A stretch of DNA of 64,000 nucleotides, taken from Geobacteraceae bacterium (GTDB lineage Bacteria > Desulfobacterota > Desulfuromonadia > Geobacterales > Geobacteraceae). The notes under the pieces were generated by a model. It was not told the DNA's origin and did not search any database. It worked only from the letters and a program-made list of their open reading frames with translations. Shown piece after piece: positions 1 to 57,477 of the stretch (positions are counted from its first letter, which is position 1; every line of letters starts with the position of its first letter). A program made the position numbers and the translations under genes. The stretch is taken from NCBI GenBank assembly GCA_024281055.1, contig JAMXLF010000013.1:1-64000 (forward strand). Reading direction: 5' to 3'.

Positions 1-3000
1 ACAATCTGGGCACAGTCCGCCGGCGGTATCATCACCGTCACGAACGCTCTGCCTAACCCGGTAAAACTGACCTCGGCTTACGGCCAGGTTTTCGGGTCCT
101 ACTCCACCGCGGGTGGTGTTGCTCCGAGTGTAACCGTAACGCCGAACCCCGGCTACAATGTTGCTAGCCCTCTTACCACCTGCACGGGTTCCATCGCGAC
201 CGGGGCCACCTCGTCTACCGTGACCTGCGCGGAAGGGCAATCGGTTCAGGCCATGTTCACCTATGGTCCGCAGGCTGCCGTCATGACGGCAGCCGCCGGT
301 GCGGGCGGTCACGTGAACATGATGCAACTCTCCAACATCTTCGTCGGCCAGAAGTTCGTCAGCGCCGTCAACTTCAAGTTCACCCCGAGCGCCGGCTACA
401 GTGTAAGCGGCATCACCGGCGTGCCCGCCGGTGCGATCGTGACCCCGACGCCTTGGGCAGTTAACCAGGTCGTGTCGGTCATGTTCCCGGCCGGCTACCT
501 GCTCACCAACGTCCCCGTGAACCTCGTCGCTTCGTTCGGGACCACCCAAGCCGTCGCCAATGCCGGTGCGCCCCAGACCATCATCGCTCCCGCGTCGACG
601 GCAACCCTGAACGGCTCCGCCAGCCTCAACGCAGTGAGCTATTCTTGGACCCAGACCAGCGGCCCCGCTACGGCAACCCTTGCCACCCCCACGGCTGCAT
701 CATGCGCCGTCAGCAACATGACCGCCCTGGGCACCTACTTCTTCAAGCTGACCGTTAACGGCAGCGTGTACAAAACCACCAGCGTCACCGTGTCCAACTC
801 GATCGCGGCTGCTGCCGCCACCGAGTGCGTGAACTGCCACGACGCCAACGGCATCGGCGGCGGCCTTGCTGCCGGCGGTGTCTACGCCAACTACACCAGC
901 TCCATTCACGGGCAGAGCACCCACGCCCTCTGCGCCATGTGCCATGTCGGCGCCAACGCCGCCGGCCATCCCGGCACCGTCACGAAAAACAGCGTCGATC
1001 CGGCCACCTTCATCGACAAGGCTGCCGGCGTCAACGGCAACCAGGTTGCTGGGCAACTCATGTGTAACACCTGTCACTCTTCGACGCTTACTGACAAGTA
1101 TGCCATTCCCCATGCGAAAACTGCCCTCGGCGCAACCTGCGCCGGCTGTCACACCGGGACGAACGGCTCGAACGGCATTGGCGATGCGCACTCGATCAAG
1201 GCACCGTCCAATCTGAGCGCCCTGCCCAACACCCTGTGCGAAAACTGCCACAGCCAGGCAACATCAGGCAATGCAACAGCGTCCATCTACAATGCCTACA
1301 AAGCCTCGGTCCATGCCGGTTCCGACGGTGATACCGGCCACAGCAGCTGCGCAGCTTGCCACAGCGGCTCTCATGATGTGACTGTTCACGCCTCGACGCA
1401 AAACGTCGACCCGGTCACCTTCAAGACCACTACTGCTACCGTTGCCACCAGCCATGGTGTTCTTGCCCAAGGCGCCATCTTCTGCACCGGTTGCCACAAC
1501 CCGATTCCGCACAGCACCACCTTCAATGCCGGCTTCACCTGCGCAGGCTGCCACACCAGCACGAACGGCACCGGCGGCACCGGTACTCCCCACGACATTA
1601 AACCGCTTAGCTGCGTGAAATGTCACGAAGTCGGTCAGCAGCAGCCCATCGCCGGCCTGGTTAACGACAACAACGGCGTCCGGGCGATCATGCCTGAATT
1701 CCGGAAGAGATCGCACCACATCCTCAATGGACCTGGTGTTGATCCCACGGACGAGCAGTGCGCCGTATGCCACCTGGAAGGCCACACGGGCACCTACGGT
1801 TTCGGTGTCGATAATACAAAACACATGGCAGACGGCTTTGTCCATCTGCGTAACGCCGACACCGACGCTGAGATCCTGTGGAGCGGCACCGAGCACACCA
1901 ACATGGACAACTTCTGTTTCTCCTGCCATGACTCCAACGGCTGCCAGAGTGCAGTAAATGGTGCGGTCCACGCATTCCTCCCGACTGCAACCGCCCAAAA
2001 CCCGTTCGGTGACACCCTCACCAACGGCTATGACCAGGTTCAGCGCGCCGGCGTTGTCGACGTGAAGACCGCCTTCACCACCACCAACGCCTCTCACCAC
2101 GCGGTCAGCGGTCAGCGGTACCAGTACCGCTTCTCCACCAACGCGAACGCCGCGGCCTGGGCTGCCCGGACCGGCAACCCCCTCCCGGCTGCCAACCAGA
2201 TCGCGGAGAACGATCCTAACTACGTTACCGGCACGTTCGATGCGAGCGAAACCTTCAACGGCACCGAAGGGAATGCAACCCTGTTCGAAGCCGGCAAGTT
2301 CGTTGCCGCGTACACTCCGCTCGGCGCTTCCGCGTCCGTCGGTGACAACTCCACCCTCCACTGCGGCGACTGCCATACCGTCGGCCAGTGGACAAACACG
2401 AACACCACCTACAACAAAGCAGCCATCGGTGCCCACGGCTCCAACAACGAGTACCTGCTGCGCAACAACCTCGGTACCGACGCGATTCACAACAACCTGA
2501 CCTATGTCTGCTTCAACTGCCACGGCAGCGGCAGCCAGCTCGTAGCCGGCGCCACCCACCCGCTCACCAACAAGAACCAGGTGCAAGGGTACGCCACCTC
2601 CCACTCCGTCTCCGCCTTCCACATCCAGTGCCTTGCGGATTCGGCCGACAACATCGGCGTCACCAACCGTCTCTCGATGGCCTGGGTAGGCTACCAAGTC
2701 AAGACCCTTGATTACGCTCCGTACGCCGGTACTGCGGTTGCTCCGGCGGCCGGCAGCGACGGCGCCGTCGGCAACATCACCGGCATCGCCTGCACCAACT
2801 GCCACAACAGCGCCATCCGCAGCGGCTTCGGCGGCATCCACGGCGGCGACAACTCCTACACCGACGGTTTCGGCAGGGCGCAGAAATCCTACCGCTTCAT
2901 GCCGGGTATGGGTAACTACCGCTACGCACCTCCGGGCGGCTGGGACGGCAAAGACACCACCTACGTAGCACCTGTCGGTAGTGCTGATGCCGGCAAACCG

Positions 3001-3222
3001 GTTGGTGGTTGCTACACCAACAGCTCCCTGACCGGGTCCGATCCGAACACCGGCTACAGCGCCTGCAGCCACCACGGCACTGCCGCTGCACCAGATCCCA
3101 ATAATCCTAACGTTCTGGGTGGTGGTACGGCCGGTGCACCGTTCACGAGCACGTCTGCCGAGTACACGATCCGTGATGCTACGGCCGGCAACTCCCTCGT
3201 AACACGGCCGCTGAAGTACTAG
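1..3222 (+). CDS. multihaem c-type cytochrome, 5' end outside window
   Basis: The frame is open from base 1, so the start codon and signal peptide lie upstream and 1,073 codons are visible; the GTG at 220 is internal. Codons 1-180 are Ala/Thr/Val-rich beta-type sequence. Codons about 183-266 look like a PKD/REJ-type domain (YSWTQTSGP near codon 214). From codon 276 (base 826) to codon 935 (base 2805) there are 14 CXXCH haem-attachment motifs, the last being CTNCH. The tail holds a further Cys/His cluster (CSHHG) that is not CXXCH. Such proteins are exported and receive haem in the periplasm, then carry electrons in or beyond the envelope. The genes that follow encode haem-attachment machinery, which fits. 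Identity of the class is clear; the specific cytochrome is not recognised. Confidence 0.95.
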   Translation, partial: TIWAQSAGGIITVTNALPNPVKLTSAYGQVFGSYSTAGGVAPSVTVTPNPGYNVASPLTTCTGSIATGATSSTVTCAEGQSVQAMFTYGPQAAVMTAAAGAGGHVNMMQLSNIFVGQKFVSAVNFKFTPSAGYSVSGITGVPAGAIVTPTPWAVNQVVSVMFPAGYLLTNVPVNLVASFGTTQAVANAGAPQTIIAPASTATLNGSASLNAVSYSWTQTSGPATATLATPTAASCAVSNMTALGTYFFKLTVNGSVYKTTSVTVSNSIAAAAATECVNCHDANGIGGGLAAGGVYANYTSSIHGQSTHALCAMCHVGANAAGHPGTVTKNSVDPATFIDKAAGVNGNQVAGQLMCNTCHSSTLTDKYAIPHAKTALGATCAGCHTGTNGSNGIGDAHSIKAPSNLSALPNTLCENCHSQATSGNATASIYNAYKASVHAGSDGDTGHSSCAACHSGSHDVTVHASTQNVDPVTFKTTTATVATSHGVLAQGAIFCTGCHNPIPHSTTFNAGFTCAGCHTSTNGTGGTGTPHDIKPLSCVKCHEVGQQQPIAGLVNDNNGVRAIMPEFRKRSHHILNGPGVDPTDEQCAVCHLEGHTGTYGFGVDNTKHMADGFVHLRNADTDAEILWSGTEHTNMDNFCFSCHDSNGCQSAVNGAVHAFLPTATAQNPFGDTLTNGYDQVQRAGVVDVKTAFTTTNASHHAVSGQRYQYRFSTNANAAAWAARTGNPLPAANQIAENDPNYVTGTFDASETFNGTEGNATLFEAGKFVAAYTPLGASASVGDNSTLHCGDCHTVGQWTNTNTTYNKAAIGAHGSNNEYLLRNNLGTDAIHNNLTYVCFNCHGSGSQLVAGATHPLTNKNQVQGYATSHSVSAFHIQCLADSADNIGVTNRLSMAWVGYQVKTLDYAPYAGTAVAPAAGSDGAVGNITGIACTNCHNSAIRSGFGGIHGGDNSYTDGFGRAQKSYRFMPGMGNYRYAPPGGWDGKDTTYVAPVGSADAGKPVGGCYTNSSLTGSDPNTGYSACSHHGTAAAPDPNNPNVLGGGTAGAPFTSTSAEYTIRDATAGNSLVTRPLKY

Positions 3223-3280
3223 GCCACAACCTGAGAGGGGAGGGTCCGCAAGGGTCCTTCCCTCCCATTTTGATGCTATG

Positions 3281-3308
3281 AAGCCGGTGCAAGCCGGCTT
3301 TTTTTTAT
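3281..3308 (+). terminator. Rho-independent terminator after the multihaem cytochrome
   Basis: The stem AAGCCGG (3281-3287) pairs with CCGGCTT (3294-3300) around a 6-nt loop, and is followed by a run of T to 3307. A second G/C-rich hairpin (GGGAGGG ... CCCTCCC) lies just upstream at about 3237-3267. Together they should separate the cytochrome transcript from the maturation genes. Confidence 0.8.
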
Positions 3309-3436
3309 TTCAGTTTTCCGCGGCATCTGCTAAAATCAGGTTGGCCGCAGGATACAAAAAAACGGCCACAGTTCATCACGACATAGGACCTCCGTGGTTT
3401 CCGCGCCTCGGGGGTCTTTTGTGGATACGGGCCGGG

Positions 3437-4261
3437 ATGTCGAACTGGGAAACCATACTATTCTGGATAGCGCTGTTGATCTACTCCCTGGCTGCCGGGG
3501 GGTATATTTACGCCGTCGTGTTCAAGAACCCCCGGCCCCTGCCGAAGCTGATGCTCTTCATCGTCACGGGGTTCGTGATCCACAGCGCGGCCATCGGCGC
3601 CCGCTACCTCGCGTTGGGTCACCTCCCTTGGGCCGGCGACTACGAGAGCGCCCTGATGGGGGGGTGGTTCATTACCGCGGCCACGCTCTTCGTGGCCTGG
3701 CGGAACAAGGCCCTGCAGGGACTGGCCACCGCAACCGCCCCCTTGGTCATCATCATGATGGGGTACGGGGTCATGCGCAATCCGACCCTTTCCCCAATGT
3801 CGGCAAGCCTCAAGAGCTACTGGCTCTACATTCACGTCTATTTCGCCTGGCTCGCCTTCGGTGCCTACGCCCTGGCCATGGCGGCGGGGGTCATCTGCCT
3901 CCTGAAGCGGAAAGACCCGGCGAACCCTTCCTATGCGCGATTCCCTTCTCTGGCCGGCCTTGACGAGCTGATATTCCGGTACGTGGTGTTCGGTTTCATT
4001 ACTGACACCCTGATGATCGCTGCCGGGGCAATCTGGGCCAAAGACCTGTGGGGGAGCTACTGGAGCTGGGATCCGGTAGAGACCTGGTCCCTCGTCTCCT
4101 GGCTCACCTACGGCATTGCCATCCACCTTCGGGTGACGTTCGGCTGGCGCGAGACGCGGCTGGCGTGGCTGGTGATCCTCGCCCTGAGCACGGTCATCGT
4201 ATCGTTCTTCGGGGTAAGTTTCATGCTCACCAGCAGCCTCCATATTTTTAATGTGCGGTGA
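3437..4261 (+). CDS. ccsB: System II cytochrome c biogenesis protein CcsB/CcsA (ResC family), copy 1
   Basis: This is a 274-residue polytopic membrane protein of the CcsA/CcsB/ResC family, which delivers haem across the membrane and with ResB forms the haem lyase. The family tryptophan-rich signature WGSYWSWDP is at residues 205-213, followed by WSLVSW and a conserved His in IAIHLR. An upstream in-frame start at 3278 would overlap the terminator. I chose ATG 3437 because the second copy at 12365 begins with the same residues (MSN.E.I.FWI). It is the first gene of a co-directional run reaching 15674 and the paralogue of 12365-13201, differing mainly in the N-terminal third and in a short insert near residue 157. 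Confidence 0.93.
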   Translation: MSNWETILFWIALLIYSLAAGGYIYAVVFKNPRPLPKLMLFIVTGFVIHSAAIGARYLALGHLPWAGDYESALMGGWFITAATLFVAWRNKALQGLATATAPLVIIMMGYGVMRNPTLSPMSASLKSYWLYIHVYFAWLAFGAYALAMAAGVICLLKRKDPANPSYARFPSLAGLDELIFRYVVFGFITDTLMIAAGAIWAKDLWGSYWSWDPVETWSLVSWLTYGIAIHLRVTFGWRETRLAWLVILALSTVIVSFFGVSFMLTSSLHIFNVR

Positions 4262-4340: not shown

Positions 4341-4760
4341 ATGCAGATAAGCCCGGGACTCGGCGTCGCCATCATGATGAACAACTATCTCCACGATATG
4401 GCCACTGGGCTGCTGGTTGGGAGTGGCTTTGCCCTGCATGCCATCTTCCCCATCCAGAAGTCCATGAACACCCCTCAGGCGACACTCTTCTTCCTCAAGA
4501 CGAATCGCCAGATGGTGAAGTTGTTCAAATTCGCCCTCTGGTGGGTCGTCCTCGGCGGCGTTCCGCGCACCATTTTCTATACGAGCTTCGAATGGGCCAA
4601 CGCCGCGGACAAGCTCCAGGTGCCGGCCCTGGCCGTAAAGCATGTCATGATGTTTGCGGCTGTGGTCTGGGGGGTGGTCGCCTGGCGCCGGATGCAGGCG
4701 AGAGTGGCACTCCTGCGCGACTCGCTGCCGTCCGGAATGCGGGACGAGGTAGAAAGCTGA
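4341..4760 (+). CDS. small inner-membrane protein of unknown function
   Basis: A 139-residue protein with about three hydrophobic segments (residues ~20-38, ~62-80 and ~98-116), ending in a charged cytoplasmic-type tail. I do not recognise the family. It sits between ccsB and two ABC permeases and is separated from the permease gene by only 25 bases, so it is probably co-transcribed and works with the transporter or the haem lyase. ATG 4341 has a loosely placed AAAGGA upstream (4322-4327), and no better start exists. Confidence 0.75.
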   Translation: MQISPGLGVAIMMNNYLHDMATGLLVGSGFALHAIFPIQKSMNTPQATLFFLKTNRQMVKLFKFALWWVVLGGVPRTIFYTSFEWANAADKLQVPALAVKHVMMFAAVVWGVVAWRRMQARVALLRDSLPSGMRDEVES

Positions 4761-4785
4761 AGGCTGGTTTCCAAAGGTTATCAAC

Positions 4786-6015
4786 GTGCTATTCCGTATC
4801 CTCAAAAATTCCTTTCTCAAACGCCCAAAGGCCGTTTTCCTGGTATTTCTCTCCATCACCATGGGAGCAGCCGTGGCCACGGCATTCCTGGGGATTGCCG
4901 GCGAGGTCTCCCACAAGATGGCCCTGGAACTCCGCAGCTATGGCGCCAACATCCTGCTGGAGCCCTCTGCCCTCGAAGGAGGGGGATTCCTGCGGGAAGA
5001 GGACCTGCCGAAGATCAAGACGGTTTTCTGGAAATATAACATAACCGGCTTTACCCCCTATCTTTTCGGAGTCGCGGAATTCAGCGCAAACGGAAAGCAC
5101 GAACGGGGAATCGTGTCCGGGACCTGGTTTAACAAGGAATTGGTGGTGCCCGGAGAGGAAAGCACAGTCCAGGGGATAAAGGTGATCGCTCCCTGGTGGG
5201 ACGTGCAGGGTGGATGGCCGCAGGCCGCGGATGACGCCGTTATCGGCGCTGCCCTGGCAAAGCGACTTGGGCTGTCCGTTGGCGGGCAAGTGGAGGCAAC
5301 GGTCCGGGGGACGGGACAGCGTTTCCGGGTCGCCGGCATCGTCACCACCGGCGGTTATGAGGAGGAGCAGGTCTTTGCCCCCCTGGTCACGGTCCAGTCC
5401 CTGCTGCGGCAGCAGGGGAAGGTCTCCCGTGTCCTCGTGAGCGCACTCACGGTGCCGATGGACGCATTCGGTAGAAAAGACCCCGCCACCATGTCCAAGG
5501 ATGAGTACGAAAAGTGGTACTGTACCGCATACGTGACCTCGGTGGCCAAGAACGTCGAGGAGGTCATGGCCGGCAGCCGGGCGAAGCCGATCTGGCAGAT
5601 CGCCAGCGCCGAGGGAGCGCTCCTCAAGAAACTGAACAGCGTCATGCTCCTCCTGACAATATTGGCCCTTGGCGCCTCGGCCACCGCCGTTTCCACGAGT
5701 CTCATGGCTTCCATGGCGGAGCGGAGCCCGGAAATCGCCCTGATGAAGGCGGTGGGTGCCGACCGTTTCCAGATAACCGCCATATTCGTCGGTGAAACCC
5801 TGATCATCTCCTTGTGCGGGGGAGTAATCGGCTACCTGCTGGGGGACCAGCTTGCCGAGCTTATCAGCCGGACTGTCTTCAACTCTACCATCGCATCTCC
5901 CCTCTGGCTTTTCCCGACCGCCATCGTATCGGCATTTGTCGTGGCCGTTGCCGGAAGCGTTGCCCCCCTGCGCCGGGCCTTGAGGATCGAGCCGGTAAGG
6001 GTGTTGAAAGGATAG
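4786..6015 (+). CDS. FtsX/MacB-type ABC transporter permease 1
   Basis: A 409-residue permease with an N-terminal membrane segment (residues ~15-40), a large periplasmic domain (~45-270) and three C-terminal membrane segments. The FtsX-family cytoplasmic motif PEIALMKAVGA precedes the second of these, and the protein ends with the typical R.EPVRVLKG tail. Translation starts at GTG 4786. It forms a module with the second permease (6088) and the ATPase (7264). The closest known arrangement is the accessory ABC set of P19-type iron-uptake loci (Campylobacter cj1661-cj1663 type). The substrate is unknown. MacB/LolCDE-type transporters move periplasmic substrates by mechanotransmission rather than by a membrane channel. 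Confidence 0.9.
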   Translation: MLFRILKNSFLKRPKAVFLVFLSITMGAAVATAFLGIAGEVSHKMALELRSYGANILLEPSALEGGGFLREEDLPKIKTVFWKYNITGFTPYLFGVAEFSANGKHERGIVSGTWFNKELVVPGEESTVQGIKVIAPWWDVQGGWPQAADDAVIGAALAKRLGLSVGGQVEATVRGTGQRFRVAGIVTTGGYEEEQVFAPLVTVQSLLRQQGKVSRVLVSALTVPMDAFGRKDPATMSKDEYEKWYCTAYVTSVAKNVEEVMAGSRAKPIWQIASAEGALLKKLNSVMLLLTILALGASATAVSTSLMASMAERSPEIALMKAVGADRFQITAIFVGETLIISLCGGVIGYLLGDQLAELISRTVFNSTIASPLWLFPTAIVSAFVVAVAGSVAPLRRALRIEPVRVLKG

Positions 6016-6052
6016 AATTCGCAAGTTGCTTGATGCATATATGACTACCATT

Positions 6053-6080: not shown

Positions 6081-6087
6081 CTTCTTT

Positions 6088-7248
6088 ATGACGAAACGAC
6101 GCTGGCTCGTATATCTGGTCGCGCGGGCGCTTGCCCACCGCAAGGGGCGCACCGTACTTCTTCTGGCGGTACTGGCCATGGCGTCCAGTCTGGCCACCGC
6201 TCTCGGTATCGTGTCGATCTCCATGGGAAAACGGGTGGCCGAGGAGGTTCGGAAATACGGCGCCAACCTCGTCATTATCCCCGACAGCGCCCGGCTCGAC
6301 GTGGGAAGCGGGGGGCTCAATTTCGGGGCCGTGACCGAGCCGGCGTACCTGAACCAGCAGGAAGTGGAGGGTGCCTTGGCCCGGAGCGGCCTCAAACCGG
6401 GTCGTTCCTTTCATCTGCGGGGATCGCTGCACTGGAAAGACGCTGACATTCTGGTGGAAGGGGTCAATTTTGACGAGATTCGCCAGCTGTTTCCCTGGTG
6501 GCAGATAAAGGGCGGGTGGCCCGCTGCCGGAGAAGCGGTCGTGGGAAGCGACATGGCGGCCCGGTTGGGGCTCAAGGGGGGCGAGACGCTGGAGCTTGCC
6601 GGACCGGGACAGTCGGTCAGGGTGCGTGTCTCCGGAATAGTTTCTTCGGGGGGAGAGGAGGATGGCCTGTTCTTCCTGAGCCTGCCTGAACTGCAGAAGG
6701 TCCTGGGCCTCGAAGGGAAACTCACCACGGTCAGGCTCCTGGTCACCGCCGAGGGGGAAAGCCTTAAAAAAAGAGCTGCGGCCCTACAGCCTCTTCTGCC
6801 GAAGGCCAAGGTCTCGGAAGTGCGGCAGATTGCGCGGACCAGCGAAGGGCTTCTGGCCAAGGTCAAGCTGCTGATGGTCCTCGTTACCGCGGTGGTGCTG
6901 ATTTCGGCGGGAAGCAGCGTGACCGGCACCATGAGTACCACGGTGCTGGAGCGGGGGAAGGAAATAGGTCTCATGAAGGCAATGGGAGGGGGGCGTTGGG
7001 AGGTATTGCTGATATTCTCCGCAGAGGCTATCATGCTCGGCCTCTTCGGGGGTGGAGCGGGATATCTGCTCGGTAGTGCCGTTGCCCAGTTCATCACGCG
7101 CGCCGTCTTTGCCACATCAGCAGATTTTATCCCCTGGTTTGCCTGTGTCTCCCTCGGCGTGAGTCTTTTCCTCGCCCTTCTGGGGAGTGTCGGACCGTTG
7201 ATATCGGTGTTCAGGCTCGATCCCGTCAGGAGCCTGAGAGGGGAATGA
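6088..7248 (+). CDS. FtsX/MacB-type ABC transporter permease 2
   Basis: A 386-residue paralogue of the preceding permease. It has an N-terminal membrane segment with a basic start (TKRRWLVYLVARAL), a periplasmic domain with the same WW.(I/V).GGWP stretch as permease 1, the FtsX motif KEIGLMKAMGGG, and three C-terminal membrane segments ending in LDPVRSLRGE. The two probably form a heterodimer served by the ATPase at 7264. No good Shine-Dalgarno sequence precedes ATG 6088, where a 7-bp repeat lies instead, so expression may depend on coupling to the upstream gene. Confidence 0.9.
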   Translation: MTKRRWLVYLVARALAHRKGRTVLLLAVLAMASSLATALGIVSISMGKRVAEEVRKYGANLVIIPDSARLDVGSGGLNFGAVTEPAYLNQQEVEGALARSGLKPGRSFHLRGSLHWKDADILVEGVNFDEIRQLFPWWQIKGGWPAAGEAVVGSDMAARLGLKGGETLELAGPGQSVRVRVSGIVSSGGEEDGLFFLSLPELQKVLGLEGKLTTVRLLVTAEGESLKKRAAALQPLLPKAKVSEVRQIARTSEGLLAKVKLLMVLVTAVVLISAGSSVTGTMSTTVLERGKEIGLMKAMGGGRWEVLLIFSAEAIMLGLFGGGAGYLLGSAVAQFITRAVFATSADFIPWFACVSLGVSLFLALLGSVGPLISVFRLDPVRSLRGE

Positions 7249-7263
7249 TGAAGGTGAAGAGGT

Positions 7264-7944
7264 ATGGTCATGTCAACCACAATCATTGAAACAGGCGGCC
7301 TCACCAGAAACTACGGTGACATATGCGCTCTGAAGCCGCTTGATCTGAAGGTTCCCGAGGGGGAGTGGCTGTCGGTCATGGGACACTCAGGTTCCGGGAA
7401 AAGCACTCTTCTGAATCTGCTGGGCGGTCTCGACAGGCCGAGCAACGGCTCACTGAGAGTTGGTGGGGAAGATATGCAGGGCCTCACCGAGGACGGCCTC
7501 GCTCGTTTTCGGCGGGAATTCGTAGGGATCATCTTTCAGCAGCACCATCTGATTCCCTATCTGACGGCCGTGGAAAACGTCATGATGGCGCAGTACTTTC
7601 ACAGTGTTCCTGACGAGGCGGAAGCAAGGCTCGCCCTGGAGCGGGTGGGGCTCGGTCACCGCCTGAAGAACCGGCCGAGTGAGCTGTCGGGGGGGGAGCA
7701 GCAGCGGGTTTGCATTGCCCGGGCCATCATCAACAGCCCGAAGCTCCTGCTGGGTGACGAGCCGACCGGCAACCTGGACCACAAGAGTACGCTGATGGTG
7801 ATGGAGCTTCTCAAGGAGCTGCGGGCCGAGGAACGTTTCACCATAGTCATGGTGACCCATAACCCGGAAGTGGCGGCCTGGGGGGATCGAACCATCTACC
7901 TGGATGACGGCATACTTGTGCGGGAAGAACGGACGAGGTCCTGA
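7264..7944 (+). CDS. ABC transporter ATP-binding protein (LolD/MacB type)
   Basis: A 226-residue ATPase with Walker A GHSGSGKST (residues 40-48), Q-loop region IIFQQHHL, signature LSGGEQQR (141-148), Walker B LLLGDEPTG with D165/E166, and the switch His in VTHNPE. The length fits LolD/MacB-type stand-alone ATPases. It energises the two permeases upstream. Its stop codon overlaps the start of the DUF2318 gene by one base (TGATG), so the two are translationally coupled. The start could be ATG 7264 or ATG 7270. Confidence 0.95.
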   Translation: MVMSTTIIETGGLTRNYGDICALKPLDLKVPEGEWLSVMGHSGSGKSTLLNLLGGLDRPSNGSLRVGGEDMQGLTEDGLARFRREFVGIIFQQHHLIPYLTAVENVMMAQYFHSVPDEAEARLALERVGLGHRLKNRPSELSGGEQQRVCIARAIINSPKLLLGDEPTGNLDHKSTLMVMELLKELRAEERFTIVMVTHNPEVAAWGDRTIYLDDGILVREERTRS

Positions 7945-9281
7945 TGGTTCTGGCCAAGCTTGCACCGCATCTCCTTTCCTGGGCCGGGATTGTCCTGGCC
8001 ATGGGGAGAGGGTTTTCCGGCCGGCGTTCCGTCGTGGCGGCCGGAGCGATCGTCGGGTTTCCCCTCGGGGTGGCCGGAGCCTGCCTGCTTTCCCGTGCGT
8101 ACCCGGGAGATTTTTCCTTCGCGATAATCAGGGATATCGTGGGGGGAAGCTTTCTCCTGCTCTGGGGCGGGGCCGTTGCGGCCATCTACAGCAGCACTGT
8201 TCGGGAATTCCCGCGGTCGTGGGGAGAACGGCTCGCGAATTCTCCGTTCTGTGCCGGGGCCGTTGCCCTTTCATCCGGCATGATCGCAGGAGCTATCAGC
8301 GCCTGCCGGCTCGTCGGGACCTATAACACTCTCCCGCCGTTCCTGCTCCTCGCGTTGGCGGCCTCCATTCTGGCCTTGGCGGCCCTCGCGGTCGAAAGGG
8401 CTCTTGCGGCCTCCTTCCCGGTGTCGCACTCGGGCCTGATGGCATCCGTGGTGGCGCTCCTTCTCTTCAGCGCTTCGTCCATCATCCGGCTCGATCTTTT
8501 TTCGCCGCTCACCATGAAGCTGATGAAGTTTTCCCACGATTTCGTCCACCAGTTTTTCGAGTCGATGCTGATTCCTGACCACCTCTTCATCCGCACGTAT
8601 CTCTGGGGGTACATCGGGCTCCTGTTCGGCAACGGGGTCGGTTTCTGGGGGGCGCTCATCCTCTGGTTCACCCCGGCGGTCCTTGTTGCACTGGCCATCC
8701 AATGGGAGCGGCTGCCGTCGGTGGCCCATATCCGGCAGGGAGCCCAGCGTCGACGGCTTCTGGCCACCGGCATCAGGGCGCGGCGCTTCCGGCTCGTTAT
8801 TCCCGTGCTTGCGATGGTGGTCCTGGCGGCTGCGGTCTACCGGAGCCGTTTCCCGAGCGTGGAGTACTGGGACCCGAAACCGCTGCCGATCTCGGCAAGC
8901 CCCTCCGGGGATATTTTCATCCCGAAAAAAGGGGATGTCGACCTGGAGGATGGCAAGTTGCACAAGTACCTGTTCAAGCAGGGAGGGCGGGAAGCACGCT
9001 TCTTCGTGTTGATGACCCCTGCCGGGAAGTTGACCGTCGATCTGGATGCCTGCGCCATTTGCAAGCCGGACGGCTATGGCCAGGCTGAAGGGACGGTGAT
9101 CTGCTATTACTGCAAGACGCTCATCCCGTTGGAAACAGTTGGACAACCGGGAGGATGCAACCCTATCCCGCTTCCGTTTACGGAGAAGGAAGACGGGGTA
9201 CACATTGACGGTCTGACTCTCCTCAACATGTGGGGAACTAACGCCCAGTCAACTGCGCGGGTAAAGGGGGGGGGCAAGTGA
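7944..9281 (+). CDS. DUF2318-type Fe-S membrane protein
   Basis: A 445-residue protein with about eight to nine membrane segments in residues 1-310 and a C-terminal cysteine domain. The cysteine pattern is C370-x2-C373 ... C387-x2-C390 ... C405, inside the family motif C..C....YGQ..G...C..C. This is typical of DUF2318 proteins, which occur beside P19/FTR1 iron importers and are predicted to bind a metal or Fe-S centre outside the membrane. Here it overlaps the ATPase gene by one base and the ResB-like gene by four (GTGA). This ties it to both the ABC module and the haem-lyase genes. No FTR1 or P19 homologue is present in the window. Confidence 0.85.
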   Translation: MVLAKLAPHLLSWAGIVLAMGRGFSGRRSVVAAGAIVGFPLGVAGACLLSRAYPGDFSFAIIRDIVGGSFLLLWGGAVAAIYSSTVREFPRSWGERLANSPFCAGAVALSSGMIAGAISACRLVGTYNTLPPFLLLALAASILALAALAVERALAASFPVSHSGLMASVVALLLFSASSIIRLDLFSPLTMKLMKFSHDFVHQFFESMLIPDHLFIRTYLWGYIGLLFGNGVGFWGALILWFTPAVLVALAIQWERLPSVAHIRQGAQRRRLLATGIRARRFRLVIPVLAMVVLAAAVYRSRFPSVEYWDPKPLPISASPSGDIFIPKKGDVDLEDGKLHKYLFKQGGREARFFVLMTPAGKLTVDLDACAICKPDGYGQAEGTVICYYCKTLIPLETVGQPGGCNPIPLPFTEKEDGVHIDGLTLLNMWGTNAQSTARVKGGGK

Positions 9282-10555
9282 GTCGACCGCTTCGCGCCAT
9301 CTGGGCGGTTATATCATCCCGGGCCACGTCTCCGCTCGTCATCGGCGTATTCCTTCTCATCTATATCGTGTTGGCTTTCATCACCGATGATACCTTGATT
9401 GCCTTGATGGAATATACCCGGACGAACGTTTTACTCGTGGTTCTCCTTGCCCTGGTGCCCCTGAACAGCGGGTGCCGGATCGTGAAGGAAACGGATCGTC
9501 ATCTTAAGCTCCGTCGTGCGTTGGCGGGGAAAAGCGCCAACGATCCATCGGGTCTCTTCGACGAATCGGTCGCGCTGCCTGTTCCGTCATCGTTTGACGG
9601 GCTGTCGGGACGACTTGCCGCAACGGGATACAGGGTTCGCTGCACGGGGGGCACGCTCGCCGCATGGCGAGGAGTAAGCATCTACCCGGTACGGGTGCTC
9701 TTCCTTGCCGGGATGTTTTGCCTCTTTGCCGGCATTCTGGTGAGTCTCACCACCCGGACTACGCACAGAATGTCGGTCATCGAAGGGGAGCCGCTCCCAA
9801 CGGCAACGGGGGGAGGCGGCCTGGTGGAGAGGATCACCTTGAAGACGGGGGCCGGTCCCATTCTTGCGAAGATCCTTACCATGGACGTAGCTCCGTCGGA
9901 TTCAGGGGATGGAAGGAAAGTTTTCGGTTTATATCCCCCGTCTCTCTACCGTGGTTATTTCGTCTATCCCCGCTACATCGCGATAGCCTCCATTATCCGC
10001 TTTTCTGCTCCCGGTGGGCAGACGGCCTACGAAAAGCAGGCGGTCATGAACATTTATCCCGCGGGAAAAGAGGACCGGGTGGAAATCCCCGGCTCTCCTT
10101 ACCGGATACTGTTCAGCATGATTCAGCCGGAGGATGGAAGTGACCCCTATGTAACCGGCCGCATCACCTATCTGTTCAAGCTGATGAACGGTAAGGAGGT
10201 CATCTTTGCCGGGAGCTTGCCGGTTGGCGGAGAGTTTGTCCGTGATGGCTACCGCCTGGCAATCCCCGAAGGAAAGCGGATGGTAATCACTGATTTCATC
10301 CAGGACTACGGGGTGCTGCTGGTCTGGGGGGCCGCGATCTTTTTCCTTGCCGCGGGGTGCATCTGGTTGCCGGTGACGATTTTTCTGCCTCGTCGGGAGA
10401 TGCTCTTCGTCTCCGCTCCGGACAACATTCATGCCTGTTCCCGTTCGGAGGGAGGGGGGAGAAAACATGGTGGGGTATTTCATGAGGCGCTGGACTTTCT
10501 TGAAGCGGGGATGGCTGACAGACAGCCGTTTGATGGGGGATCGGCAGAGAAATGA
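9278..10555 (+). CDS. ResB-like protein, divergent copy 1
   Basis: A 425-residue membrane protein resembling ResB/Ccs1. It has two hydrophobic segments near residues 18-38 and 45-62, a third at ~145-165, a large extracytoplasmic beta-rich domain (~170-340), a last segment at ~347-370 and a cytoplasmic tail. ResB holds haem or apocytochrome for the CcsB channel. The GTG start at 9278 overlaps the DUF2318 stop (GTGA). It is clearly divergent from the canonical ResB at 13237, and its C-terminal 50 residues are low-complexity and charged. Assignment rests on topology and neighbours, so it is less certain than for 13237-14598. Confidence 0.75.
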   Translation: MSRPLRAIWAVISSRATSPLVIGVFLLIYIVLAFITDDTLIALMEYTRTNVLLVVLLALVPLNSGCRIVKETDRHLKLRRALAGKSANDPSGLFDESVALPVPSSFDGLSGRLAATGYRVRCTGGTLAAWRGVSIYPVRVLFLAGMFCLFAGILVSLTTRTTHRMSVIEGEPLPTATGGGGLVERITLKTGAGPILAKILTMDVAPSDSGDGRKVFGLYPPSLYRGYFVYPRYIAIASIIRFSAPGGQTAYEKQAVMNIYPAGKEDRVEIPGSPYRILFSMIQPEDGSDPYVTGRITYLFKLMNGKEVIFAGSLPVGGEFVRDGYRLAIPEGKRMVITDFIQDYGVLLVWGAAIFFLAAGCIWLPVTIFLPRREMLFVSAPDNIHACSRSEGGGRKHGGVFHEALDFLEAGMADRQPFDGGSAEK

Positions 10556-10725
10556 CTGGATTTTGTCCAGGTAAAATGTTAAGGTTTTTTCTTGACTAAT
10601 TGTTGATGGCCGACAAAGCCATTGCTTCTATCTTTTGCTCAAATAGGCTTGAAAACGGTGTGGCCATAAGAGCACTATTGCCAGGAAGATCGATTTTGGA
10701 TGGCAAAGGGAGGTCTAGAAAACCT

Positions 10726-11004
10726 ATGAGGAAATCATTGTTTTTTGTGCTGCTAGTAACGCAGTTGCTGATCGGCCAACTTGTGTCTGCAGATGAGTAT
10801 GAATCATGCATGGATAAGTGTTCCGGAGATTTTCAGAGCTGCATGGGCGGGATTACTGTGGTCAACGATATAGAAATTCAGGATGCAAAATCTCAGTGTG
10901 ACAATACAAACACACAATGTGTCACCGTATGCCAGGAGAATCATACAAAAGCACAAGAAGGCAAGAGCGACAAGGATCAGCAAGAATCACAGGGCAAAGA
11001 ATAG
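10726..11004 (+). CDS. small exported six-cysteine (symmetric C-x3-C-x6-C) protein, copy 1
   Basis: A 92-residue protein with a clear signal peptide (RKSLFFVLLVTQLLIG..VSA, cleavage near residue 22). The mature part has Cys spacing C-x3-C-x6-C-x18-C-x6-C-x3-C, a mirror-symmetric pattern, and then a charged Lys/Gln/Glu tail. I do not know a named family. The spacing suits two helices with cysteines on one face (i, i+4, i+11), joined as a disulfide-stapled hairpin. ATG 10726 is chosen over 10600 because GGGAGG (10708-10713) precedes it and the signal peptide begins there. A homologue with the same pattern is at 57172-57477. Here it sits between two ResB-like genes. Confidence 0.85.
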   Translation: MRKSLFFVLLVTQLLIGQLVSADEYESCMDKCSGDFQSCMGGITVVNDIEIQDAKSQCDNTNTQCVTVCQENHTKAQEGKSDKDQQESQGKE

Positions 11005-11005
11005 G

Positions 11006-11043
11006 GGCACGACAACAATGATGGTTTGTCTTGTTGTGCCTTT
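11006..11043 (+). terminator. hairpin, possible weak terminator or attenuator
   Basis: GGCACGACAA (11006-11015) can pair with TTGTTGTGCC (11031-11040) with one G-U pair, and is followed by only three T. It lies directly after the six-cysteine gene, where partial termination or mRNA end protection would raise that gene's expression over the next one. Confidence 0.4.
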
Positions 11044-11137
11044 ATGAGGAGACAGTGATTCCAGGTTGGTTCAACTTCTTTGTAACACTCTGAGATTCGG
11101 ATCAACTTCATTTTATAGTCAGGAAGTGATTGAGCGC

Positions 11138-12298
11138 ATGCAAAAAATAACCAAGTATTTTTTTACATCCCCGTATTTCCTGTTTCTTTTTCTCTTGATT
11201 CCCGCTTACACCATTTTGGGCCCCAGATGGCATCTTCATGTCTCAGGGAACTTATTGCTCATCAATAACGGCTGCTTCCTGTTGTGTATAGTAGCGCGCC
11301 TTGCCCGATGCGTGATTGGAATGCGGGGCGACATACGGTACGGGGCCGACTATCGGCAGCCAACGGACGTGGTGGCGCTGGAAAGGCCAACATCGCACCT
11401 GCGGCAGAAAATGGCTGACGCCGGGTACCGTTTTGATTCCGACGGTTTTTACGGTGAAAAACGCGATCTTGGATATCTGGGGACAGCACTTTTGTATGGT
11501 GGTCTGGCAGTTCTGCTTTTCTTCGGCTCGTATGACTACATGCGTGAATATTCGGTCATGGGGCGACTGGGAGTTGGGGAACCAATGCCGCTCGATAAGA
11601 GTGGGTTGGTCGGAGAAATCGAGGCAGCTGCTCTGGCAGGAACGAAGCGACTCCCTCTCGTTCAGGTCAGAAGCCAGATTCTGCCCAATCAGCAATGGCC
11701 GAAGGGGGCAACGCAAATTGCCCTGCTCACCAAGGATCGCAAGGAGCTTGCCAAAGCCACCATCGCGCCTGGGAAGTCATTCAGTTACGGCGGCCTGGAT
11801 TACCATATGACCAAGTTCGTTTTCGACGCGCTCATTACGATCAGAGAGGGCAAATTCATCATCTACGAAAGCTTTGTCAAATTCTTTCCCCTCGCTCAAA
11901 ACAAAGGGGCTTACAGCTACTACGGGTCACTCGTCGGCAGGGATACCGGAAAGGTGAAGGGCTCTGTCTGGCTTAATCCTGAAAAAAAAGCCGTGCTGGT
12001 AGAGGCGACACTTGATGGGAAAAAAATTGTCGATACCGACCTGGAACTCTGGGGCGAGAACAAAAAGACGCAGGGAAATTATGTGGCGGCGATCGAAGGT
12101 CTCGCCCAATGGTCCGAAATGAGGGTAGCCCGTACCAGGCACACCATGATGCTGATGATTGGCGGTATTATTGCCATCCTGGGAGCGGCTATGAGGCTTC
12201 TGATCCGCCCGCAGCGAGTATGGCTTGAAGACGCTGACGGCGGCTGCCGGGCACGGGCTGCGGGGAGAAAAACGATGCGGCTGCTCCAGGCTGAATAG
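11138..12298 (+). CDS. ResB-like protein, divergent copy 2
   Basis: A 386-residue membrane protein with the same layout as 9278-10555. It has two N-terminal hydrophobic segments (residues ~10-30 and ~38-55), a third at ~92-112, an extracytoplasmic domain of about 220 residues, and a final membrane segment at ~332-352. A basic tail follows. I chose ATG 11138 because AGGAAG lies 12 bases upstream and the first membrane segment starts nearby; a TTG at 11066 extends the frame but has no signal. It lies immediately before the second ccsB and probably pairs with it or modifies its specificity. Confidence 0.75.
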   Translation: MQKITKYFFTSPYFLFLFLLIPAYTILGPRWHLHVSGNLLLINNGCFLLCIVARLARCVIGMRGDIRYGADYRQPTDVVALERPTSHLRQKMADAGYRFDSDGFYGEKRDLGYLGTALLYGGLAVLLFFGSYDYMREYSVMGRLGVGEPMPLDKSGLVGEIEAAALAGTKRLPLVQVRSQILPNQQWPKGATQIALLTKDRKELAKATIAPGKSFSYGGLDYHMTKFVFDALITIREGKFIIYESFVKFFPLAQNKGAYSYYGSLVGRDTGKVKGSVWLNPEKKAVLVEATLDGKKIVDTDLELWGENKKTQGNYVAAIEGLAQWSEMRVARTRHTMMLMIGGIIAILGAAMRLLIRPQRVWLEDADGGCRARAAGRKTMRLLQAE

Positions 12299-12364: not shown

Positions 12365-13201
12365 ATGTCAAACTTGGAATCAATATTCTTCTGGATATCA
12401 CTGGTAGTATACTCTCTGGCGACCGGCGGCTACATTTACTCATTCGTATTCAAGAACCCGAGATTCATGCCAAAAATGACGGTCCTCATTTTCGTCGGGT
12501 TTCTCGCCCATAATGCCGCCATCTGTGCCCGCTATGTCGCTCAGGGGCATCTCCCCTGGTCCGGGGATTACGAGAGTGCCTTAATGGGAGGATGGTTCAT
12601 CATCGCAGGCACCCTCTACGTGGGATGGCGGAACAAGGCCCTGCAAGCCCTGGCCACCGGCACCGCACCGCTGGTCGTCATCATGATGGGATTCGGCGTC
12701 ATGCGCAACCCGGTGCTCACCCCCATGGCGGCAAGTTTGAAAAACTTCTGGCTCTACATTCACGTCTACTTTGCCTGGCTGGCTTTTGGGGCGTATACCC
12801 TGGCCATGGCTGCCGGGATTCTGTACCTGATGAAACGGAAAAGCTCGGCGAGCGGCGTCGTGAACCCGTCCTACGATCGATTCCCGTCCCTGGACCGTCT
12901 GGACGAGCTTATCTTCCGTTACATAGTGTTCGGATTCATAACCGATACCATCATGATCGCGGCCGGCGCCATCTGGGCAAAGGACTTGTGGGGGAGCTAC
13001 TGGAGCTGGGATCCGGTGGAAACATGGTCGCTGGTTTCCTGGCTTATCTATGGAATAGCCATCCATTTGCGGGTCACGTTCGGCTGGCGGGAGTCGAAAT
13101 TGGCATGGATGGTCATCCTTGCTCTGAGTACGGTGATCATATCGTTTTTCGGTGTCACGTTCGTCATCGACACCAGCATGCACACGTTTCAGGTGCGGTA
13201 A
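12365..13201 (+). CDS. ccsB: System II cytochrome c biogenesis protein CcsB/CcsA (ResC family), copy 2
   Basis: A 278-residue polytopic protein very similar along its whole length to the product of 3437-4261. It has the WGSYWSWDP haem-handling signature at residues 209-217 and the same IAIHLRVTFGWRE stretch. The main difference is an added SASGVV-type insert near residue 157. It is followed after 35 bases by a canonical resB gene, the usual partner of this family. The pair should catalyse haem export and covalent attachment to CXXCH cysteines. Two near-identical CcsB proteins in one run suggest duplication with different ResB-type partners. Confidence 0.95.
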   Translation: MSNLESIFFWISLVVYSLATGGYIYSFVFKNPRFMPKMTVLIFVGFLAHNAAICARYVAQGHLPWSGDYESALMGGWFIIAGTLYVGWRNKALQALATGTAPLVVIMMGFGVMRNPVLTPMAASLKNFWLYIHVYFAWLAFGAYTLAMAAGILYLMKRKSSASGVVNPSYDRFPSLDRLDELIFRYIVFGFITDTIMIAAGAIWAKDLWGSYWSWDPVETWSLVSWLIYGIAIHLRVTFGWRESKLAWMVILALSTVIISFFGVTFVIDTSMHTFQVR

Positions 13202-13236: not shown

Positions 13237-14598
13237 ATGATCAAGAAAATTGTCAAATTTCTGAGTTCACTTCGATTCACCCTGCTTCTCATCTCCCTGC
13301 TTGGGGTGATGTTCCTGCTGGGGCTCTGGATTCCGCAAGTAAGCCTGGTATCACCTGCGCTCTACAGCCAGTGGAAACAGCATTCTCCGTCATTGGTCCG
13401 GACATTGGAGACGCTGGGCTTCACCTCGATCTATGCATCTCCTATCATGCTGATCCTGTGGGGATTCTTTTTCGTCAACCTGGCGCTGGTCATGTGGCAG
13501 CGGATTCCCCTCATCAGGAAGCGGATCTCCCTCCCCGAAGGACGCATCGGCAATCCATCGACTGCGGCCGGGTATTCGTTCCGTGCTTCGTACCATCTGC
13601 CGCAGGATATGGACGGTTCAGCCATCCGCGGATTCCTGCGCAAGCGCGGTTTTACGGTTATCGGCGATGACGAAGGTTTCTGCGGAGTAAAAAATCGCCT
13701 CTCACCGATTGCTTTCGGACTTTTCCACATCAGTTTCTTTCTTATTCTTCTCGGCGGGCTGATCAGCGTTTATACACGGTTCACCGGCATGCTTGACCTC
13801 GGCATAGGAGAGCCGTTTCAGGGGGAGGTGGCACGCTATAACGCGACACCACAACTGCCGAAGATCGGCGTACCGCCGCGGGCATCCTTCACAGTCTTGA
13901 GTATAGTTCCCATGATCAGTCATGGCACGAAGACCGGCCTCAGGGTGCGACTGGTCGATGCCCAGGGGGTGGAACACGAAGCCGATGTAAACCGCCCGTA
14001 CAAGGTTGACAGCACCAACTTCATTGTCAATCAGGTGGGAGTGGCGCCGCTTTTTGTCGTCAAGGACTCGGCGGGGAAAGAAATCGACGGGGCCTATTTC
14101 AAGTTGAACGTCATGGGAGGTCAGGAAGATGTATTTTCCCTGGCAGGCTTCCATTTTCGGGCACGCTTCTACCCGGACTACGTCGTCAGGAATGGTGCGG
14201 CTGCCACCCGGTCCCAGGAATTCAACAACCCGGTCTTCGTAATTACCGCAGAGCGGCAGGGGAAACCGATAACCCAGGGGACCGTTACCAGTAACGGTGT
14301 CATGGACTTTGCCGGCTACCAGCTGGTATTGAAAGAGCTCCCTTTCTGGATACGCTTTTCGGTTTTCAAGGAGCACGGGCTCGCCATAATCTATGCGGGG
14401 TTTGCCGTTGCATCGCTTGCCGTTATCTGGCGCTTTCTCTTTTACCGGCGAGAAGTCATTGGTGCCGTGCGCGATGAAGAGGGGGAACGGCTTCTCGTTG
14501 TTGCTGGTCGTTCGGAATTTTACAAAAGCCTCACGGAAGACGAATTTAACGGTCTCTTTACTACGTTATTTGAAAAAAACGGGAGAACTGACGCATGA
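13237..14598 (+). CDS. resB: cytochrome c biogenesis protein ResB/Ccs1
   Basis: A 453-residue protein of the ResB family. It has a first membrane segment at residues ~10-32 (LRFTLLLISLLGVMFLLGLW), a second at ~68-88 and a third at ~160-182. A large extracytoplasmic domain (~190-375) is followed by a last segment at ~378-400 and a cytoplasmic tail. It forms the haem lyase with CcsB, encoded 35 bases upstream. Its stop codon overlaps the next start (ATGA), so the WG-repeat lipoprotein is translated from the same message. Of the three ResB-type genes here, this is the most typical. Confidence 0.9.
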   Translation: MIKKIVKFLSSLRFTLLLISLLGVMFLLGLWIPQVSLVSPALYSQWKQHSPSLVRTLETLGFTSIYASPIMLILWGFFFVNLALVMWQRIPLIRKRISLPEGRIGNPSTAAGYSFRASYHLPQDMDGSAIRGFLRKRGFTVIGDDEGFCGVKNRLSPIAFGLFHISFFLILLGGLISVYTRFTGMLDLGIGEPFQGEVARYNATPQLPKIGVPPRASFTVLSIVPMISHGTKTGLRVRLVDAQGVEHEADVNRPYKVDSTNFIVNQVGVAPLFVVKDSAGKEIDGAYFKLNVMGGQEDVFSLAGFHFRARFYPDYVVRNGAAATRSQEFNNPVFVITAERQGKPITQGTVTSNGVMDFAGYQLVLKELPFWIRFSVFKEHGLAIIYAGFAVASLAVIWRFLFYRREVIGAVRDEEGERLLVVAGRSEFYKSLTEDEFNGLFTTLFEKNGRTDA

Positions 14599-15674
14599 AA
14601 CGATTGATCGGATTGTCATTGGCCGTTCTGGCTCTCTGCACTGCTTGCCACCGGGAGGGGACAAAAGAAACAGTAACAGTAACGGATGATTCATACCGGG
14701 TGCTGGTAAAAAGCCAGGGTAAATACGGATACTGCGACCGCAACGGCACTATGATTATTCCTGCCCAGTACGAAAGTGCGTCGCTTTTCTCCGAGGGATT
14801 GGCTGCTGTACGCCAGAGCGGTAAGGACGGTTACATAGACGTGAAGGGGAACTTTCTGATCCCCCCCCACTTCGATGCCGCGTCTATTTTCAGAGAGGGT
14901 AAAGCAGCTGTGAGAACGGGCGACAGATGGGGGTATATTGACAAGAGCGGAAAGCAGGTTTCCGAGTCGCACTTTGTCGTCACGTTCGCATTCACGGAAG
15001 GGCTTGCATCCGTTGTGGTGTTTGAAAAGGATGGCTTCAAGGCGGGTTACATAGGGCAGGACGGGAAATATGCCATCTCGCCCCGGTTCGACGACGCATC
15101 TTTCTTTTCCGAAGGGCTGGCAGCTGTAAAAATCGGTAAAAAGTATGGTTATATCGATAAAAAGGGCGAACTGGTCATCAATGCCGAATATAATGAGGCA
15201 AGCGCCTTCGAGGACGGACTTGCCCGGGTAAAAATCTATGGGAATTACGGCAAAGTGGGTTTCATCGACCACAAGGGCACGATGGTCATCCCAGCCCAAT
15301 ACGCTAACGCCACCAATTTCAGCGACGGCGTCGCGGCAGTCAAAAATGGCACGAAGTGGCAGTTGATCGACACCAAGGGTAACCAGATCACGAACCGGCA
15401 GTTCGACTTTCCCACCATCTTTACCGAAGGTCTGGCGCCGGTTGTGGAAAATAAGAAAATCGGCTACATGGACAAGCAGGGGAAGATGGTAATCGCGGCG
15501 AAATATGACGCAGGCTCAATCTTTGTCAACGGCATCGCCCCGGTCCAGGTGGGAGAAAAATGTGGCTACATCAACAAAAAGGGTGATATGGTGATCAAGC
15601 CTGAATTCGAGTGGGACGGGCGTACCATTGACCAGTATGTCTCCTATTACACAACCATCGGGCGTAAAAAGTAA
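14595..15674 (+). CDS. WG-repeat lipoprotein
   Basis: A 359-residue protein with a lipoprotein signal (lipobox LCTAC, Cys18). It has nine WG-type repeats of about 33-40 residues, each with a core like (K)(Y/W)GYID.KG...I...(F/Y)..A..F.EGLA.V. WG repeats form beta-structures thought to mediate protein contacts. The ATG overlaps the resB stop by four bases, so it is the last gene of the cytochrome maturation run and is probably translated with it. A periplasmic scaffold or apocytochrome-holding role is an inference from position only. The repeats differ enough from each other to be old. Confidence 0.9.
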   Translation: MKRLIGLSLAVLALCTACHREGTKETVTVTDDSYRVLVKSQGKYGYCDRNGTMIIPAQYESASLFSEGLAAVRQSGKDGYIDVKGNFLIPPHFDAASIFREGKAAVRTGDRWGYIDKSGKQVSESHFVVTFAFTEGLASVVVFEKDGFKAGYIGQDGKYAISPRFDDASFFSEGLAAVKIGKKYGYIDKKGELVINAEYNEASAFEDGLARVKIYGNYGKVGFIDHKGTMVIPAQYANATNFSDGVAAVKNGTKWQLIDTKGNQITNRQFDFPTIFTEGLAPVVENKKIGYMDKQGKMVIAAKYDAGSIFVNGIAPVQVGEKCGYINKKGDMVIKPEFEWDGRTIDQYVSYYTTIGRKK

Positions 15675-57171: not shown

Positions 57172-57477
57172 TTACTTCGCCTGGGGCGGAAGGGTTGGGC
57201 TCGAAGTGCTCGCATTCGTATCCGAACTCGCATTCGAGCCCCCCTGCGAACTCCCCTGGGAGCAGCCCACGTAGCAGAACCTGAGCGCCGCTTCGCAGGT
57301 GCCCCTGGTTGCAGAACTCTGCTTTTTCACCTCAACGTCCTTGTCATCCCCCATGCATGCCGCGAAAGCTTGATTGCAGGAGGTTCGGCAGTCCAGATAT
57401 ACATCCGCGTGCGCCCCCTGCGGCGCAAAACTGACAAGCAGGGCGCAAAGCATGACGGTCACGAAACTTCTTTTCAT
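57172..57477 (-). CDS. small exported six-cysteine (symmetric C-x3-C-x6-C) protein, copy 2
   Basis: A 101-residue protein with a signal peptide (RSFVTVMLCALLVSFAPQGAHA). The mature part has Cys spacing C-x3-C-x6-C-x19-C-x6-C-x3-C, the same mirror-symmetric pattern as the product of 10726-11004 (x18 in the middle there). The tail is Ser/Asn/Thr-rich where copy 1 is Lys/Glu-rich. AAGGAGAG precedes ATG 57477; the frame upstream of it is not used. It lies 22 bases downstream of the collagen-like secreted protein gene on the same strand, so both are probably co-expressed. Confidence 0.85.
   Translation of the reverse strand: MKRSFVTVMLCALLVSFAPQGAHADVYLDCRTSCNQAFAACMGDDKDVEVKKQSSATRGTCEAALRFCYVGCSQGSSQGGSNASSDTNASTSSPTLPPQAK

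What the first reader, a model, noticed from the sequence alone, without database searches (positions are those of the whole stretch)
10726..11004. Mirror-symmetric six-cysteine exported protein family, two copies in one window
The products of 10726-11004 and 57172-57477 share a signal peptide and the spacing C-x3-C-x6-C-x18/19-C-x6-C-x3-C but little other sequence, so the pattern is what is conserved. Each half places cysteines at i, i+4 and i+11, one face of a helix. A helical hairpin stapled by three nested disulfides (C1-C6, C2-C5, C3-C4) is the natural model, analogous to but not the same as CHCH or small-Tim twin-Cys proteins. One copy sits inside a haem-attachment cluster, the other beside a secreted fibre protein. 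I know no described family with this pattern.
Basis: partly seen in the sequence, partly recalled or inferred. Interest (0 to 1): 0.78.

Follow-up and report, generated by a model that had tools for sequence, protein, structure and literature searches.

The report
Three-staple hairpin protein beside haem lyases
Two small exported proteins in this bacterium belong to an unnamed family found almost only in Geobacter-type bacteria: each is probably a pair of helices pinned together by three nested disulfide bonds, and in eight genomes its gene ends a gene cluster that attaches haem to respiratory cytochromes, although the same cysteine spacing is already known from aphid and worm peptides.

Summary
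Both proteins are real members of one family. A profile built only from relatives in other genomes finds both in the window at E=1.5e-15 and 3e-13. The family has 24 members here, almost all in Geobacterales. No Pfam, NCBIfam or PHROGs family was credibly matched.

Cysteine spacing is mirror-symmetric in 23 of 24 members. One subgroup changed both inner gaps together, from 6 to 10, as nested pairing predicts. AlphaFold2 gives a two-helix hairpin for copy 1 (good confidence) and copy 2 (weak). Pairing itself was not measured.

"No described family" is wrong for the pattern. Aphid BCR3 peptides have the same spacing, nemertean neurotoxin B-IV contains it, and glycocins prove the nested x6 pair. 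These look like convergence.

Context: in 8 genomes of 5 genera the gene directly follows a ResB-like gene in a module of FtsX permeases, ABC ATPase, FtrD/FetA-like protein and ResB-like protein, usually near CcsA, ResB and cytochrome genes. The best mechanism is a rigid acidic periplasmic accessory of cytochrome c maturation. The fold is likely; the function is inferred. Other members, copy 2 included, lack that context.

The parts
10726..11004 (+). copy 1, six-Cys exported hairpin protein (92 aa); signal peptide about residues 1-22, Cys at residues 7, 11, 18, 37, 44, 48 of the modelled fragment (numbered from A22)
57172..57477 (-). copy 2, six-Cys exported hairpin protein (101 aa), minus strand
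9278..10555 (+). ResB-like membrane protein directly upstream of copy 1; no Pfam match, profile-profile match to the neighbouring ResB family
7944..9281 (+). polytopic membrane protein with FtrD-like / DUF2318 domain (PF10080), FetA-like
7264..7944 (+). ABC ATPase of LolD/MacB type
6088..7248 (+). FtsX-type permease 2
4786..6015 (+). FtsX-type permease 1
4341..4760 (+). small membrane protein conserved in the module (cluster c10)
3278..4261 (+). CcsA-type cytochrome c assembly protein
1..3222 (+). large multihaem c-type cytochrome, up to 13 CxxCH in its frame (runs off the window start)
11066..12298 (+). ResB-family protein
12365..13201 (+). CcsA/CcsB-type haem lyase subunit
13237..14598 (+). 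ResB
14595..15674 (+). WG-repeat exported protein conserved in the module

Best explanation
The two proteins belong to one Geobacterales family of small, acidic, Sec-exported helical hairpins. Shown: family membership, symmetric cysteine spacing, acidic charge, and gene context. Predicted: each mature protein is two antiparallel helices. Inferred: the helices are stapled by three nested disulfides (C1-C6, C2-C5, C3-C4), so the cysteines are structural and not catalytic or haem-binding. The operon-linked members (copy 1 and seven others) most likely act as a rigid periplasmic adaptor or assembly aid of the dedicated cytochrome c maturation machinery they are encoded with: FtsX permeases, ABC ATPase, FtrD/FetA-like membrane protein, ResB-like protein and CcsA/ResB haem lyase. 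A natural binding partner is the periplasmic domain of the adjacent ResB-like protein. Copy 2 and the standalone members have the same scaffold with a different, unknown partner. Rough odds: family real 0.97; hairpin 0.85; nested pairing 0.75; structural accessory of haem attachment for the operon-linked members 0.4.
For: Leave-out profile finds both copies. Six Cys invariant in 13 aligned members; mirror spacing in 23 of 24, with loops of 18-22, and a subgroup with both inner gaps 10 instead of 6. AlphaFold2 for copy 1: helices 3-20 and 27-58, pLDDT about 87-94 over the hairpin; copy 2: helices 2-19 and 32-55. Precedents for the pairing and fold: glycocin pairs C7-C30 and C14-C23 are nested with x6 spacing by mass spectrometry (PMC12457901), and neurotoxin B-IV, which carries the same half-motifs, is a solved helical hairpin (PMC6410017). 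The gene follows the ResB-like gene on the same strand in G000, G005, G048, G051, G054, G057, G092 and G265 (5 genera, 3 families), overlapping it by 4 bp in G092. In G005 ten genes run CcsA-ResB-WG-c10-FtsX-FtsX-ABC-FtrD-ResB-like-SixCys; G265 adds a multihaem cytochrome and a second ResB. This synteny is kept although the proteins are mostly only 20-30% identical to copy 1. All members are acidic, pI 4.1-5.0.
Against: Only 8 of 46 genomes with the ResB-like gene have the six-Cys gene beside it, so it is dispensable for the module. Most other members, copy 2 included, have no haem-lyase context. Nothing shows a physical interaction. Model coordinates could not be read, so Cys-Cys distances are untested. 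The alignment had only 7 rows and copy 2's model is weak. One member (G048) reads x7 against x6. Foldseek found no significant PDB match. The genome has DsbA homologues but no DsbB or VKOR by Pfam, so the oxidant is unknown.
Confidence: 0.42

Rival explanations
1. Redox-active thiol carrier. The cysteines cycle between thiol and disulfide and relay or buffer reducing power between the FetA-like DUF2318 domain (two CxxC motifs) and apocytochrome CxxCH thiols, filling the place of the FetE/FetF thioredoxins of Campylobacter.
For: The module resembles Campylobacter FetA-FetB-FetC-FetD, where thioredoxin-like FetE/FetF are encoded downstream and a redox relay is proposed (PMC10783030). The six-Cys gene takes that 3' place and no thioredoxin gene is evident in the operon.
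Against: No CxxC or other fast-exchange motif; all six Cys are arranged as in stapled hairpins and kept together; absent from 38 of 46 modules.
Confidence: 0.17
2. Secreted peptide effector or antimicrobial built on the disulfide-stabilised helical hairpin, like glycocins, BCR3, alpha-hairpinins or B-type nemertean toxins.
For: The same scaffold and spacing recur in antimicrobial or toxic peptides; sequences diverge fast; related loci encode an 8-Cys hairpin fused to a knottin-like tail.
Against: All members are acidic, whereas membrane-active members of those groups are usually cationic (own knowledge). The operon-linked group sits with haem lyases; no immunity gene or peptide-maturation gene was recognised.
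Confidence: 0.13
3. Metal or haem chaperone: reduced cysteines bind Cu, Fe-S or haem for delivery to the maturation machinery, in the way Cox17 serves mitochondrial oxidase assembly.
For: Context of haem attachment; six invariant Cys.
Against: No other conserved ligand residue (His or Met) in the alignment. Symmetric spacing is explained by stapling; a metal site gives no reason for the paired 6-to-10 change.
Confidence: 0.1
4. No shared function: a generic stable scaffold for several unrelated periplasmic or surface roles. The operon position of one group is inherited synteny and the gene is a passenger.
For: Scattered contexts of the non-operon members; absent from most modules; optional gene.
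Against: Operon position kept in 5 genera despite low identity, with a 4-bp overlap in G092, points to selection on the linkage.
Confidence: 0.18

Closest known systems
Aphid BCR3 (bacteriocyte-specific cysteine-rich peptide 3)
   Same: Same cysteine framework, CX3CX6CX21-25CX6CX3C, with a secretory signal peptide (PMC9604261)
   Different: Insect, restricted to aphids, antimicrobial activity reported; disulfide pairing unknown; sequences were not compared here, so homology is untested but very unlikely
Nemertean neurotoxin B-IV (PF07822, PDB 1VIB)
   Same: Solved helical hairpin cross-linked by disulfides; its two helices carry C-x3-C-x6-C and C-x6-C-x3-C; only PDB sequence hit of the profile (E=4.3, not significant)
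   Different: Eight Cys, animal toxin, no significant sequence similarity
Glycocins (glycocin F, sublancin, thermoglycocin)
   Same: Bacterial two-helix peptides with nested disulfides at x6 spacing, shown by mass spectrometry (PMC12457901)
   Different: Short, glycosylated, exported by C39-peptidase ABC transporters, no outer CX3C staple
Acrorhagin I (PDB 6UX5) and alpha-hairpinins
   Same: Disulfide-stabilised helical hairpins
   Different: Different cysteine numbers and spacing; Foldseek E=7.2 only
CHCH (twin CX9C) and small Tim (twin CX3C) proteins
   Same: Helical hairpins with nested disulfides used as structural or assembly proteins (own knowledge)
   Different: Mitochondrial, four core Cys, other spacing; no profile match
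Campylobacter FetABCD (fetMP-fetABCDEF)
   Same: Context only: DUF2318 membrane protein, two permeases, ATPase (PMC10783030)
   Different: No haem lyase or six-Cys protein described there; here FetM, FetP and thioredoxin genes are not part of the cluster

Membership tests
Six-Cys family defined here | profile match by a model that excludes the tested sequence | tested here: met
   E=1.5e-15 and 3.2e-13 in window six frames
Six-Cys family defined here | signal peptide followed by mirror-symmetric six-Cys core | tested here: met
   signal peptide judged by eye, no predictor available
Nemertean B-IV toxin family (PF07822) | significant profile match | tested here: not met
   Pfam: one of 13 members at E=0.58; PDB profile search E=4.3
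Nemertean B-IV toxin family (PF07822) | eight Cys | tested here: not met
   six Cys in the mature protein
Aphid BCR3 | CX3CX6CX21-25CX6CX3C | tested here: inconclusive
   same framework with a loop of 18-22 (PMC9604261); sequences not compared
Glycocins | nested C-x6-C pairs | tested here: inconclusive
   x6 spacing met in most members, pairing not measured
Glycocins | leader peptide with C39-peptidase transporter and dedicated glycosyltransferase in the cluster | tested here: not met
   Sec-type signal peptide; transporter genes beside copy 1 are FtsX type
CHCH / small Tim | twin CX9C, or twin CX3C with only four core Cys | tested here: not met
   spacing 3-6-loop-6-3; no Pfam match
Disulfide-stabilised helical hairpin (structural class) | two antiparallel helices | tested here: met
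   AlphaFold2 prediction of two helices for both copies, weak for copy 2; prediction only
Disulfide-stabilised helical hairpin (structural class) | disulfides linking the helices | not testable with these tools

The most novel reading that the evidence does not exclude
A bacterial counterpart of the twin-cysteine assembly factors of mitochondria: a triple-stapled periplasmic hairpin that serves as a dedicated assembly factor of a special cytochrome c maturation machine (ABC transporter, FetA-like protein and ResB/CcsA) for giant multihaem cytochromes, with paralogues adapted to other surface complexes.
Probability: 0.2. Interest if true: 0.75.

Novelty: new variant of a known kind. Interest (0 to 1): 0.5.

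Why it matters
If the adaptor reading is right, metal-respiring bacteria evolved their own stapled-hairpin assembly factors for cytochromes, in parallel with the CHCH and small Tim proteins of mitochondria. It would also give a handle on how Geobacterales mature very large multihaem cytochromes, and on what an ABC module of the Fet type does beside haem lyases. As a scaffold, the family suggests that one cysteine framework has arisen separately in bacteria, aphids and ribbon worms.

Tried and rejected
Pfam, NCBIfam and PHROGs scans gave no credible family. The NCBIfam hit PRK10040 (E=0.0035) is far below its cut-off. Several single-sequence genome hits (L005, L008-L013) fall in a long protein, apparently RNA polymerase beta', and are false. 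Weak profile hits L046-L053 lack the spacing. Plasmid tblastn was empty. Outside the order, 395 genomes of the phylum gave only one weak hit, an 8-Cys protein. The wide contig scan gave 7 loci, all Geobacterales or Desulfuromonadales by title. Foldseek against PDB gave only generic, insignificant helical matches.

Link to multihaem cytochromes in general: 10 of 25 family regions of about 20 kb against 2 of 20 arbitrary regions hold an ORF with 4 or more CxxCH. The ten collapse to about four lineages, so this is suggestive only. A tree of the family has only three well-supported branches and places copy 2 on a very long branch, so its descent is unresolved. Copy 2 beside a fibre protein is not conserved and is treated as incidental.

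Full report
WHAT IS THERE. Copy 1 (10726-11004, +) and copy 2 (57172-57477, minus strand) are as described except for the strand of copy 2. Both start at ATG with a Shine-Dalgarno-like stretch upstream and a Sec-type signal peptide judged by eye. Spacing is 3-6-18-6-3 and 3-6-19-6-3.

IT IS NOT CHANCE. A regex for the symmetric spacing gave 18 distinct hits in 702 kb of six-frame ORFs, all of them family members, and none in three shuffles. A profile built from 15 relatives without the window proteins finds exactly the two proteins in the window, at 1.5e-15 and 3.2e-13. The cysteine core alone gives 5e-8 and 7e-8.

THE FAMILY. Searches of about 280 genomes of the class and 395 of the phylum place it almost only in Geobacterales; the contig scan agrees. 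I assembled 24 members. The six cysteines are invariant in the first 13. Spacing is 3-6-n-6-3 with n 18-22 in 18 members, and 3-10-13-10-3 in five (four from one genus, one from G261). One member, G048, reads 3-7-20-6-3. The joint 6-to-10 change is what an antiparallel hairpin with pairs C2-C5 and C3-C4 requires. It is probably one event, since those five form one clade. All mature proteins are acidic, pI 4.1-5.0, with variable, often Pro/Glu-rich tails.

FOLD. AlphaFold2 on a 7-row alignment gives copy 1 as helices 3-20 and 27-58, mean pLDDT 81.6, about 87-94 over the hairpin. Copy 2 is helices 2-19 and 32-55, mean 69.5. In copy 1 the cysteines are at 7, 11, 18 and 37, 44, 48, so the three nested pairs have the same sum of positions (55), as an antiparallel register needs. 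Foldseek gave only insignificant hairpin matches.

CONTEXT OF COPY 1. Around it lie a multihaem cytochrome, two CcsA-type genes, two ResB-family genes, two FtsX permeases, a LolD/MacB-type ATPase, an FtrD-like (PF10080) membrane protein, a WG-repeat protein and the adjacent 9278-10555 gene. The last has no Pfam match but aligns with the ResB family profile over 282 columns (hhalign probability 89, E=2e-6). Of 141 genomes of the order, 46 have this ResB-like gene. Thirty loci were inspected. In the other 16 genomes the six-Cys gene is absent or on another contig. It directly follows the ResB-like gene in eight: G000, G005, G048, G051, G054, G057, G092 and G265 (5 genera, 3 families), with a 4-bp overlap in G092. 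G005 and G265 show the full operon ending in it. In G008 and G014 the module continues into ResB without it, so it is an optional accessory. GC falls to 0.41-0.47 over copy 1 against about 0.55-0.65 upstream, so it may have a separate history.

OTHER CONTEXTS. Four loci of one genus lie beside giant multihaem cytochromes and a peptidyl-prolyl isomerase-like gene. Others are beside sugar-phosphate metabolism genes or alone. Copy 2 follows a collagen-repeat protein by 22 bp; no other member examined does. Multihaem ORFs occur in 10 of 25 family regions against 2 of 20 arbitrary ones, but the lineages are not independent.

MECHANISM. Shown: family, spacing, charge, operon position. Predicted: hairpin. 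Inferred: three nested structural disulfides and an adaptor or assembly role at the ResB-like protein. The Campylobacter Fet system has the DUF2318-permease-permease-ATPase set followed by thioredoxins, with a proposed redox relay (PMC10783030). That makes a thiol-carrier role the first rival. The genome has DsbA homologues but no DsbB or VKOR by Pfam, so how the disulfides form is open.

COMPARISON WITH KNOWN KINDS. The pattern is not new. Aphid BCR3 is CX3CX6CX21-25CX6CX3C (PMC9604261). Neurotoxin B-IV contains both halves and is a solved hairpin. Glycocins prove nested x6 pairs in bacteria (PMC12457901). The family fails the profile test for PF07822 and the biosynthetic test for glycocins, so convergence is the best reading. 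It is a new, undescribed family within the known class of disulfide-stabilised helical hairpins.

Noticed in passing
L164, L165, L075 (and L163 with a different tail): Exported proteins with an 8-Cys mirror-symmetric hairpin domain (C-x3-C-x6-C-x3-C, loop of 10-13, then C-x3-C-x6-C-x3-C). In L164, L165 and L075 this is fused to a knottin-like tail C-x6-C-x6-C-C-x4-C-x8-C; two of them have weak Pfam resemblance to tachystatin B (E 0.04-0.1).
   Followed up: partly
window 4341-10555: A Fet-like module (FtsX, FtsX, ABC ATPase, FtrD/DUF2318 membrane protein) tied to ResB-like, CcsA and ResB genes and a multihaem cytochrome; its ResB-like gene occurs in 46 of 141 genomes of the order. No literature on this combination was found.
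   Followed up: partly
window 10600-11200: Local GC minimum (0.41-0.47 against 0.55-0.65 upstream) over copy 1.
   Followed up: no
window 57500-60217 (-): Long exported protein with collagen repeats (PF01391) and many degenerate short repeats, 22 bp upstream of copy 2.
   Followed up: no
window 20303-22030, 28186-30147, 30107-32029; L055-L060, L073: Large membrane glycosyltransferase-like proteins (cluster c1) recur near the six-Cys gene in several genomes.
   Followed up: no
whole genome G000: DsbA homologues found but no DsbB (PF02600) or VKOR (PF07884) match: the oxidant for periplasmic disulfides is unclear.
   Followed up: partly
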